This document shows, in pieces, positions 61,323 through 64,000 of a stretch of 64,000 nucleotides of DNA. Position 1 is the stretch's first letter; each line of letters begins with the position of its first letter. The DNA comes from Thermodesulfomicrobium sp. WS (GTDB taxonomy: Bacteria; Desulfobacterota; Desulfovibrionia; Desulfovibrionales; Desulfomicrobiaceae). The position numbers and the translations under genes are program-made. Where the stretch lies: contig NZ_AP027130.1 in assembly GCF_027925145.1 (NCBI RefSeq), forward strand, positions 1,116,001 to 1,180,000, in the 5' to 3' direction. The notes under the pieces are model-generated. The model made no database searches. It had not been told where the DNA came from and saw only the letters and a program-made list of their open reading frames with translations.

Positions 61323-62201
61323 TCATAGCAGTCCTTTCTCGGCGAGAAAGTCGCGCATCTGGCCTGTGTGGGCCTCGTTCATGGGCACCAAGGGCAGGCG
61401 CAATTCCAATTGGATCTTGCCCATCATGGAGAGGGCCGTCTTCACCGGGATGGGGTTGGTCTCCAGGAACATCATGCGCGCGTAGGCCGCCAGCTCAAAG
61501 TGGTAGCTACGGGCCTGGGCGATGTCCCCCCGCTGCCAGGCGGTGCACAGCCCACTCATCTTGGCGGGCACCACGTTGGACACCACGGAGATGACCCCGC
61601 ACCCGCCGATGGAGAGAAGCGGCAGCACGGTGAAGTCATCGCCGGAGAGCACCTGAAAATCCGGGCCGCACAGTTCGAGCACCTGGGAGACCTGGTTGAG
61701 GTCGCCGGTGGCCTCCTTGATGCCGATGACTTCCGGGATATCCTTGGCCAGACGGGCCACGGTGGCAGGCAGCAGGTTGGTAGCGGTACGGCCGGGCACG
61801 TTGTAGAGTACGTAAGGCATGGGCACTTCCTGGGCGATACGCCGGAAGTGCTGGTAGAGGCCTTCTTGGGTGGGTTTGTTGTAGTACGGGGTGATGAGCA
61901 GCGCCCCATCGGCCCCGGCCTCCTTGGCGAAGCGGGCCAGTTCCACGGCCTCGGTAGTGTTGTTGGATCCGGCTCCCGCGAGCACCGGCACCCGGCCGCG
62001 CACCTGCTCCACGCAGATGCGGATGACCCGCTTGTGTTCCTCGTGACTCAAGGTGGCGGATTCGCCGGTGGTGCCGCAGGGGACCACGCCATGGATGCCC
62101 TGCTCGATCTGCCATTCGATGAGGTTCCGGTAGGCCTCTTCGTCGACGCGGCCCTGGGAAAACGGCGTGACCAGGGCGGTGAACGCTCCTTTGAATTCCA
62201 T
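61323..62201 (-). CDS. dapA: 4-hydroxy-tetrahydrodipicolinate synthase
   Basis: Condenses pyruvate with aspartate semialdehyde in lysine/diaminopimelate synthesis. The 292-residue TIM barrel has GTTGES (about 44), catalytic Tyr in YNVPGRTATNL (about 133) and Schiff-base Lys in VIGIKEATGD (about 161). ATG 62201 has GGGAGG upstream. It follows dapF by 33 bases. Confidence 0.97.
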   Translation of the reverse strand: MEFKGAFTALVTPFSQGRVDEEAYRNLIEWQIEQGIHGVVPCGTTGESATLSHEEHKRVIRICVEQVRGRVPVLAGAGSNNTTEAVELARFAKEAGADGALLITPYYNKPTQEGLYQHFRRIAQEVPMPYVLYNVPGRTATNLLPATVARLAKDIPEVIGIKEATGDLNQVSQVLELCGPDFQVLSGDDFTVLPLLSIGGCGVISVVSNVVPAKMSGLCTAWQRGDIAQARSYHFELAAYARMMFLETNPIPVKTALSMMGKIQLELRLPLVPMNEAHTGQMRDFLAEKGLL

Positions 62202-62234: not shown

Positions 62235-63053
62235 TTATGGCGTGGGCGGTGCGGGCAGCTCCCCGCGAAAGACAAAGACCGCCTTGCCTCGGAGTTGGAG
62301 TTGGGTGCCGCGCACCGTGACACCGAGCTCCTCGCCCCCGGAGGTGGTGAGGCGCACGGCTTCGTCGGTCAGCCCCAAGGCATGGGCCACCGCGGCCGTG
62401 GCTGCCGCGCCGGTGCCGCAGGCGTAGGTCTCGGCCTCCACACCGCGCTCGTACGTGCGGAGGAGCAGCCGTCCTCGATCGATCACTTGGGCGAAGTTGG
62501 CGTTGGTGCCGGCCGGGGCGAAGGCCGGGTGGAAACGCAGGGCGCGGCCCATGCGGGCCACGTCCACCGCCGCCACATCGGGGACCAAAACCACGGCGTG
62601 GGGAACGCCGGTGTTGGCAAAGTGGACCGTTACGGTCGTGCCGTCCACGTCAAGGGCCATGTCCAGTTGCAGGTCTCTAAGCTCAGTGAGCTGCACCTGC
62701 ACTTCATCGGTTTCGGCAAAGACCTGGGCGCGCACCGGACCGGCGTCGGTGGCCAAGGTCAACGTGGCCGGTGCCATGCCCAGCCGGTGGGCCAAGGCCG
62801 CGGCGCAGCGCGAGCCATTGCCGCACATCTCCGCCCGGGAGCCGTCGGCATTGAAGAAATGCCAGCGGACGTCGGCACCCGCGTCTGCCGGCTCCAGGAC
62901 GATGAGCCCGTCGGCGCCCACGGAAAAGGCGCGCCGACACAGGGCCTTGGCCCAGAGGGGCATGACTTCGGGGGACAATGCCAGCTCGCGGTTGTCCAGG
63001 AGGATGAAGTCATTGCCGCTGCCATGCATCTTATAAAAGGGGATCGTCTTCAT
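62235..63053 (-). CDS. dapF: Diaminopimelate epimerase
   Basis: PLP-independent epimerisation of LL- to meso-diaminopimelate. The 272-residue protein has both catalytic Cys: MCGNGSRC (about 76) and YACGTGAAAT (about 220), plus the N-terminal FYKMHGSGNDF. It forms a dapF-dapA pair, 68 bases downstream of the putative selenoprotein gene. Confidence 0.96.
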   Translation of the reverse strand: MKTIPFYKMHGSGNDFILLDNRELALSPEVMPLWAKALCRRAFSVGADGLIVLEPADAGADVRWHFFNADGSRAEMCGNGSRCAAALAHRLGMAPATLTLATDAGPVRAQVFAETDEVQVQLTELRDLQLDMALDVDGTTVTVHFANTGVPHAVVLVPDVAAVDVARMGRALRFHPAFAPAGTNANFAQVIDRGRLLLRTYERGVEAETYACGTGAAATAAVAHALGLTDEAVRLTTSGGEELGVTVRGTQLQLRGKAVFVFRGELPAPPTP

Positions 63054-63121: not shown

Positions 63122-63934
63122 TTACGGCGCGGTGACGATTGCGGTGATCTCTGGGTCGTCTGCCACGAAGTGGGTGAGGGGGATGGCCGTGGCGGAAATG
63201 TTGTCTCCGGGCCGCCAGGTGGCCTTGGTCCCTGCAGGCGGAAACTTCTGGATGCGGATTTCTCCCACGGTCTTGCCGTCAGCGTAGGGACGCATCCACA
63301 CGGTAGCACCGTTGCCGACGAAAAGTCCGCCGGAACCAGGACCCGGCCCTGCGCCCAGCAGGATATCCAGGGCCTCGGGATGGGCCGTGAGCCAGGCCTC
63401 TTCCGCATCCGCCCCCCAGGCAGACACCCCGATGACCACCCCGGCCTTTTGGCGTGCCGCTTGGGCCATGCGGAAGGTGGCGTCGCCACGGCGGTCCGTT
63501 TCCGGCATTGCCGGAAACAGGATGATGGCGAGGGTGCCCTCGGGAGTCGTGTGCAAGGAGAGCGTGGGAGCGGCCCCAAACACCTGGCGGGAGAGGTCTG
63601 CCTTGGCGGCGCCGAGGGCCTCGTCTTCGGTGGGCGTGACGGCCACGAGGTCGTAGTCCAGGCGCGCAAATGCCTGGGCAAGACGGCGCAGATGCGCTGG
63701 CTCTGGAGCGCTTTCACCCAAGAATTCATGCGCTCCGGCGATGCGCACGGCATCGGGGCGCTCGTGAAAGATGGTGGCCCGCCGGGCCAGCCCGCCGAGG
63801 GTATGTCCCCCTCAAACCGGGCAGGGCAGGGCCTGGCCGCGGGTCTCGGCGGTGTAGAGGAGGGTTGTCTCCCCGTGGGCGGCAGAGCCCAGACAGACAA
63901 GGGCCGAGAGCAGAAGCAGGATGCGGGTGATCAT
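63122..63934 (-). CDS. UshA-like secreted protein, probable selenoprotein (TGA at 63814-63812)
   Basis: Read through one in-frame TGA, this gives a 270-residue protein: signal peptide (ITRILLLLSALVCLGSAAHG), then LLYTAETRGQALPCPV-Sec-GGHTLGGLARRA, then a 5'-nucleotidase (UshA N-domain)-like region (VRIAGAHEFLGESAPE, GVSAWGADAEEAWLTAHPEALDILLGAGPG). Codon 41 is TGA in a CPxU context, where family relatives, as I recall them, have CPxC. The reading frame stays open for 229 codons after it. The start ATG overlaps the stop of the upstream gene (ATGA), which fixes the true N-terminus. Canonical metal residues of UshA are poorly kept, so a redox rather than phosphatase role is possible. If selenocysteine is not inserted, this is a pseudogene. 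Confidence 0.7.
63778..63799 (-). promoter_or_regulatory. SECIS-like hairpin downstream of the TGA codon
   Basis: In the mRNA, bases +13 to +34 after UGA pair as CUCG/CGGG, one G-G mismatch, CGGG/CCCG around a 4-base CUGG loop (6 bases if the closing G-C opens, which would put G first). The loop lies about 21 bases after UGA, within the 16-37 base range known for bacterial SECIS elements. The G-C richness of the region makes chance folding possible. Confidence 0.4.
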
Positions 63935-64000
63935 GGTTGGCTCGGAAAGGGTTTGAGGATGGGAGAGCGGGCAATGAGCTCCTGCAGGCGCTCACGCCTG
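63931..64000 (-). CDS. C-terminal end of an unknown gene (partial)
   Basis: The last 22 codons of a gene entering from the right edge, ending in RSPILKPFPSQP and TGA (63933-63931), which overlaps the ATG of the putative selenoprotein gene. There is too little to identify. Confidence 0.5.
   Translation of the reverse strand, partial: RRERLQELIARSPILKPFPSQP

What the first reader, a model, noticed from the sequence alone, without database searches (positions are those of the whole stretch)
63122..63934. Likely selenoprotein: UshA-like secreted protein with in-frame TGA in a CPxU motif
From ATG 63934 the frame encodes a good signal peptide and continues through one TGA (63814-63812) into 229 further open codons with clear UshA-like content. 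The TGA sits at the second position of a CPxC-like motif, CPV-U-GG, followed by LGGLARRA. The ATG is locked to the previous gene by an ATGA overlap, so the part before the TGA is genuinely translated and an annotation starting after the TGA would lose the signal peptide. Desulfovibrio species generally encode the Sec machinery (selenoprotein formate dehydrogenases). A secreted UshA-fold protein with a redox CPxU would be a poorly described selenoprotein class.
Basis: partly seen in the sequence, partly recalled or inferred. Interest (0 to 1): 0.85.

Follow-up and report, generated by a model that had tools for sequence, protein, structure and literature searches.

The report
Secreted UshA-fold selenoprotein, known family
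This gene reads one of its UGA stop codons as selenocysteine and makes an exported protein whose fold is that of a phosphatase but whose metal-binding active site has been lost; the family is already catalogued, but its function is unknown.

Summary
Window 63934-63122 (-) encodes a 270-residue exported protein with an in-frame TGA at 63814-63812 (codon 41, in PCPV-U-GG). It matches a curated family over its full length, NCBIfam NF049981 'UshA-like (seleno)protein family 2' (234 bits, cut-off 140), also listed as a CxxU selenoprotein in a 2026 review. So it is not a new class. In 101 relatives, codon 41 is TGA in 91 and TGC in 10, never anything else. The genome has selA, selB, selC and selD. 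Relatives with only Cys at this site mostly lack selA; this switch is seen within three genera, including the window's own. A hairpin 28 nt after the UGA is kept by synonymous codon choice in TGA members but not in Cys members: the SECIS, lying inside conserved ARRA codons. The predicted fold is the SoxB/UshA/CD73 catalytic domain, but its metal-binding motifs are replaced. Most likely mechanism: an exported former metallophosphatase that works by selenol chemistry, with Sec41 as the reactive residue and Cys38 as its usual partner. Three members have lost Cys38 yet keep UGA and hairpin. The substrate is unknown.

The parts
63122..63934 (-). UshA-like selenoprotein, family 2 (NF049981): 270 residues with Sec41
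   Evidence: Translation with TGA=U; NF049981 at 233.9 bits against a cut-off of 140; single copy in the genome
63812..63814 (-). In-frame TGA = Sec41
   Evidence: TGA in 91 and TGC in 10 of 101 relatives examined
63872..63934 (-). N-terminal signal peptide (MITRILLLLSALVCLGSAAHG), read by eye, no predictor run
   Evidence: Sequence; a hydrophobic N-terminus is seen in most relatives
63806..63826 (-). Conserved motif P-C-P-V-U-G-G (Cys38 to Sec41, CxxU)
   Evidence: P37 and position 41 invariant, C38 nearly so, in the alignment; Cys38 absent in L072, L081, L082
63773..63792 (-). SECIS hairpin: apical loop GGC at 63783-63781, 28 nt after the UGA, in the codons of GLARRA
   Evidence: Fold; synonymous-codon test and TGC control
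63796..63814 (-). Small hairpin that includes the UGA itself (role uncertain)
   Evidence: Predicted in the same fold; several relatives show it
63931..64000 (-). 3' end of the upstream MinD/FlhG-type ATPase gene, overlapping the start codon (ATGA)
   Evidence: L002:9931-10740; minD_arch 120 bits, minD_bact 100 bits, both below cut-off
62235..63053 (-). dapF, downstream neighbour
   Evidence: TIGR00652 at 251 bits; found near the gene in 25 of 102 loci, some with short flanks
61323..62201 (-). dapA, second downstream neighbour
   Evidence: TIGR00674 at 364 bits; neighbour in 77 of 102 loci

Best explanation
The gene is a true selenoprotein gene. During translation the UGA at codon 41 is read by Sec-tRNA and SelB, guided by a hairpin whose GGC apical loop starts 28 nt after the UGA and which is written in the codons of the conserved LARRA segment (decoding genes present: shown; decoding itself: inferred). 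The product is exported (inferred from the signal peptide). It has the catalytic-domain fold of the UshA/CD73/SoxB metallophosphoesterases (predicted), but the residues that bind the two metals there are replaced (shown by alignment), so it is very unlikely to be a phosphatase. Sec41 lies in the loop after the first strand, just past the former DxH metal motif, so Sec probably took over the old active-site position (inferred). The most likely activity is thiol/selenol redox chemistry in the periplasm, with Sec41 as the attacking residue and Cys38 as the usual resolving partner (inferred). The natural substrate is unknown. The confidence given is for the selenoprotein reading; the redox step alone I would put at about 0.6.
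For: Full-length match to NF049981. In 101 relatives codon 41 is TGA in 91 and TGC in 10; 47 of the 59 genera searched hold the family. Own genome: selB 374 bits, tRNA-Sec 79 bits, selA 618 bits, selD 351 bits with its own TGA. The Sec/Cys state follows selA: in genomes at least 90% complete, selA is present in 18 of 18 with a TGA copy against 2 of 9 with only Cys, p = 4e-5; the switch recurs within genera g1, g35 and g58. Hairpin stem 6.7 bp in 88 TGA members against 2.2 expected from synonymous codons (0 of 300 shuffles reach it), still 6.15 against 1.9 in 40 divergent representatives (0 of 500), and no clear excess in Cys members. Fold: SoxB Z 20.0 over 238 residues at 3.2 A, CD73 Z 18.6, UshA Z 17.6. 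Metal motifs lost: DxH became ExR here and mostly NxY/NxF in the family, GNHE is absent, SHxG became SxWG, GGHxH became GxGxG. L072, L081, L082 lost Cys38 but kept UGA and a 6-bp hairpin.
Against: No experimental evidence of decoding or of activity. Rfam has no matching SECIS model here, and bSECISearch was not available. The hairpin of the window alone is not exceptionally stable (z -1.1); the case rests on the family. The model is unsure exactly in the Sec loop (pLDDT under 50 at 33-46). Three Cys-only genomes (genus g18) keep selA. Redox activity is inferred from Sec/Cys exchange alone.
Confidence: 0.93

Rival explanations
1. The TGA is a real stop and the gene is a degraded pseudogene, or the downstream part starts at GTG 63748.
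For: A GTG-started ORF of 208 codons exists after the TGA.
Against: The same single TGA is present at the same codon in 91 relatives, many of them in complete genomes, and the codons before and after it are conserved. The GTG start would lose the signal peptide and the conserved PCPxU and GGLARR motifs.
Confidence: 0.02
2. The TGA is a sequencing error for TGC or TGG.
For: A relative in the same genus has TGC here (L059).
Against: 91 relatives have TGA; the SECIS hairpin is present next to it; the TGC relative has no detectable selA (that genome is 85% complete), as expected for a true Sec-to-Cys change.
Confidence: 0.01
3. It is a selenoprotein, but the protein is a binding or sulfur/selenium-carrying protein rather than a redox enzyme.
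For: All metal ligands are lost; the best structural match is SoxB, which acts on a sulfur atom held on the Cys of a carrier protein (function from general knowledge); sulfate reducers handle many sulfur species; Cys38 is dispensable in some members.
Against: No partner gene is conserved nearby that would point to such a role; neighbours are prfB, GGDEF, MinD-type, HU, dapF, dapA.
Confidence: 0.3
4. It is a metal-dependent phosphatase or nucleotidase with a selenol added.
For: Fold and family name.
Against: The DxH, GNHE, SHxG and GGHxH ligand positions are replaced in the window protein and in nearly all relatives.
Confidence: 0.04

Closest known systems
NCBIfam NF049981, UshA-like (seleno)protein family 2 (reference WP_420705249.1 in PMC13188914, motif CxxU)
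   Same: Full-length match above the curated cut-off; same CxxU motif
   Different: Nothing important; three relatives (not the window) lack the Cys of CxxU, so the motif given for the family is not universal
NCBIfam NF041198, UshA-like (seleno)protein, PCGU motif (COG0737; CxU; PMC2398784, PMC9312934)
   Same: N-terminal 52 residues match (28.7 bits), with Sec in the same region
   Different: Sec spacing is CxU not CxxU; the model is 519 positions long; whole-protein score far below its cut-off of 275
SoxB thiosulfohydrolase, UshA, CD73 5'-nucleotidase (catalytic domain)
   Same: Predicted fold (Z 17 to 20 over about 240 residues) and, for 5'-nucleotidases, the GG(L/V)ARR segment
   Different: Metal ligands lost; no C-terminal substrate-binding domain; CPxU present after strand 1

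Membership tests
NF049981 UshA-like (seleno)protein family 2 | Whole-protein score above the curated cut-off (140 bits) | tested here: met
   233.9 bits over positions 2-261 of 262
NF049981 UshA-like (seleno)protein family 2 | CxxU motif, Sec encoded by TGA | tested here: met
   CPVU, TGA at codon 41; motif as tabulated in PMC13188914
Bacterial selenoprotein | selA, selB, selC, selD in the genome | tested here: met
Bacterial selenoprotein | Cys homologues aligned at the TGA | tested here: met
   10 TGC, 91 TGA, no other codon
Bacterial selenoprotein | SECIS hairpin shortly after the UGA with G in the apical loop | tested here: met
   Loop GGC 28 nt after the UGA; synonymous selection in TGA members only. 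The conserved G of the apical loop is mentioned in PMC1794560; the spacing rule is from general knowledge
Bacterial selenoprotein | Selenium incorporated in the protein | not testable with these tools
   Needs 75Se labelling or mass spectrometry
NF041198 UshA-like PCGU selenoprotein | Score above the curated cut-off (275 bits) | tested here: not met
   28.7 bits
UshA/5'-nucleotidase metallophosphatases | Catalytic-domain fold | tested here: met
   Predicted model: UshA Z 17.6, CD73 18.6, SoxB 20.0
UshA/5'-nucleotidase metallophosphatases | Dinuclear metal ligands (DxH, GNHE/D, SHxG, GGHxH) | tested here: not met
   Replaced in the window and the family

The most novel reading that the evidence does not exclude
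A metallophosphatase fold lost both metals and was rebuilt into a periplasmic selenol enzyme of sulfate-reducing bacteria. Sec replaces the metal centre as the reactive group, and its partner Cys can move elsewhere in the protein.
Probability: 0.45. Interest if true: 0.6.

Novelty: already known. Interest (0 to 1): 0.35.

Why it matters
The family is catalogued but has no assigned function, and it is widespread: 186 of 348 genomes of the class searched. Three points found here may be useful: the loss of the phosphatase metal ligands, a SECIS written into the codons of a conserved protein motif, and repeated Sec/Cys exchange that follows presence of selA within single genera. Together they make a clean system for asking why bacteria keep Sec in one protein. 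Gene callers that stop at UGA lose the signal peptide and the key motif.

Tried and rejected
Rfam gave no SECIS match. Pfam gave nothing useful; the zinc-ribbon hit (E 0.17) is probably noise from the C-P-x-C spacing. Papers of 2006 and 2007 that list Desulfovibrio selenoproteins do not mention this family in the passages found. Pseudogene, sequencing error and metal-dependent phosphatase were considered and rejected on the evidence given above.

Full report
What is in the sequence. On the minus strand, ATG at 63934 opens a frame that runs through one TGA (63814-63812) to TAA at 63124-63122, giving 270 residues: a signal peptide, then TTLLYTAETRGQALPCPV-U-GGHTLGGLARRATIF and the rest of one domain. 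The gene upstream, a 269-residue MinD/FlhG-type ATPase, ends with TGA at 63933-63931, so the start codon overlaps it as ATGA. The genome is one contig of 2.36 Mb, rated 100% complete, and holds this gene once.

Family. The read-through protein matches NCBIfam NF049981 'UshA-like (seleno)protein family 2' over its full length at 233.9 bits against a cut-off of 140, and weakly, in its N-terminus only, the sister family NF041198 (PCGU motif). Family 2 is listed as a CxxU selenoprotein, taken from GenBank annotation, in a 2026 review (PMC13188914); a UshA-like CxU selenoprotein, the sister family, was reported from ocean metagenomes in 2008 (PMC2398784). So the selenoprotein class is already catalogued, without a function.

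Is the TGA selenocysteine? Of 348 genomes in the class, 186 carry the family, in 47 of 59 genera. I read 101 of these genes: codon 41 is TGA in 91 and TGC in 10, with no other codon. The own genome has selB (374 bits), tRNA-Sec (79 bits), selA (618 bits) and selD (351 bits, itself with an in-frame TGA). Cys-only members sit mainly in genomes without selA: among genomes at least 90% complete, selA is found in 18 of 18 with a TGA copy and in 2 of 9 with only Cys copies, p = 4e-5; over all tested genomes 23 of 28 against 3 of 15. These genomes are related, so the p-value overstates independence, but the same switch is seen inside three genera: g1 (the window's own; L059/G022 has PCPVCGG and no selA), g35 (four TGA, three of them with selA; eight Cys, none with a full selA) and g58 (G340 against G341). 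Absence of selA in a draft genome can be a gap in the assembly; the five TGA genomes without selA are all under 90% complete.

SECIS. The RNA after the UGA folds into a hairpin with apical loop GGC starting 28 nt after the UGA. It is written in the codons of the conserved ARRA segment, so I tested it against synonymous codons only. In 88 TGA members the stem averages 6.7 bp against 2.2 expected (0 of 300 shuffles reach it), and in 40 divergent representatives 6.15 against 1.9 (0 of 500); Cys members show no clear excess (2.8 against 2.0, reached by 34 of 300; 1.3 against 2.2 in three divergent representatives). The loop begins with G in every TGA member (GGC 65, GGA 11, GUC 11, GAC 1). This is selection on the RNA on top of the protein, and only where the UGA needs it.

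Anatomy and fold. The AlphaFold model (pLDDT 75.7, pTM 0.77, eight sequences) matches the catalytic domain of SoxB (Z 20.0, 238 residues, 3.2 A), CD73 (18.6) and UshA (17.6). A profile of the family also finds 5'-nucleotidases by sequence (E 6e-5). In the alignment with Thermus 5'-nucleotidase 2z1a and snake-venom 5'-nucleotidase the metal motif DTH becomes ETR here and mostly NTY or NTF in the family, GNHE is gone, SHxG becomes SxWG and the GGHxH region becomes GxGxG. Strictly or nearly strictly conserved instead are P37, C38, Sec/Cys41, G47-G48, R51-R52, E70, E178, G194, G196, R215 and G220. The Sec loop itself (33-46) is poorly predicted, so its exact position is inferred from its place after strand 1.

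Cys38 is not essential. Two members in genus g3 (L081, L082) and one in g22 (L072) have lost Cys38 but keep the UGA and a 6-bp hairpin; L081 and L082 have a Cys next to the conserved Asp that matches D190, and one near the C-terminus. This suggests that Sec is the reactive residue and that the partner Cys can be supplied from elsewhere.

Neighbourhood. The order prfB - GGDEF - MinD-type - HU - ushA2 - (dapF) - dapA is kept in most loci: MinD-type in 88 and dapA in 77 of 102, several of which have short flanks. The window genome lacks the HU gene at this place. The neighbours do not point to a function.

Most likely mechanism. A selenoprotein exported to the periplasm, derived from a metallophosphoesterase that lost its metals, working by selenol/thiol chemistry at Sec41. 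Shown: conservation, decoding genes, SECIS selection, loss of metal ligands. Inferred: decoding in the cell, export, redox role. A carrier role for sulfur or selenium species remains possible, given that SoxB is the nearest fold.

Verdict.

Noticed in passing
L100, L101, L105: In genus g54 a Cys form and a Sec form of this family lie in tandem, the Cys copy first.
   Followed up: partly
L081, L082, L072: Members that lost Cys38 of CxxU but keep UGA and hairpin; L081 and L082 carry a Cys beside the conserved Asp190 and another near the C-terminus.
   Followed up: partly
L121 (own genome, C1:151464-152387): selD of this genome also carries an in-frame TGA, so it is probably a selenoprotein itself.
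   Followed up: no
window 63931-63934 and L002:9931-10740: The HU gene that usually sits between the MinD-type gene and the selenoprotein gene in related genera is missing in this genome.
   Followed up: partly
L131: A second, Cys-type member (ACPTCGQYSEGGLDRR) elsewhere in genome G174.
   Followed up: partly
L102, L103, L104 (G065, G064, G066): Genus g18 has only Cys forms but keeps selA, so the Cys form there cannot be explained by loss of the Sec machinery.
   Followed up: partly
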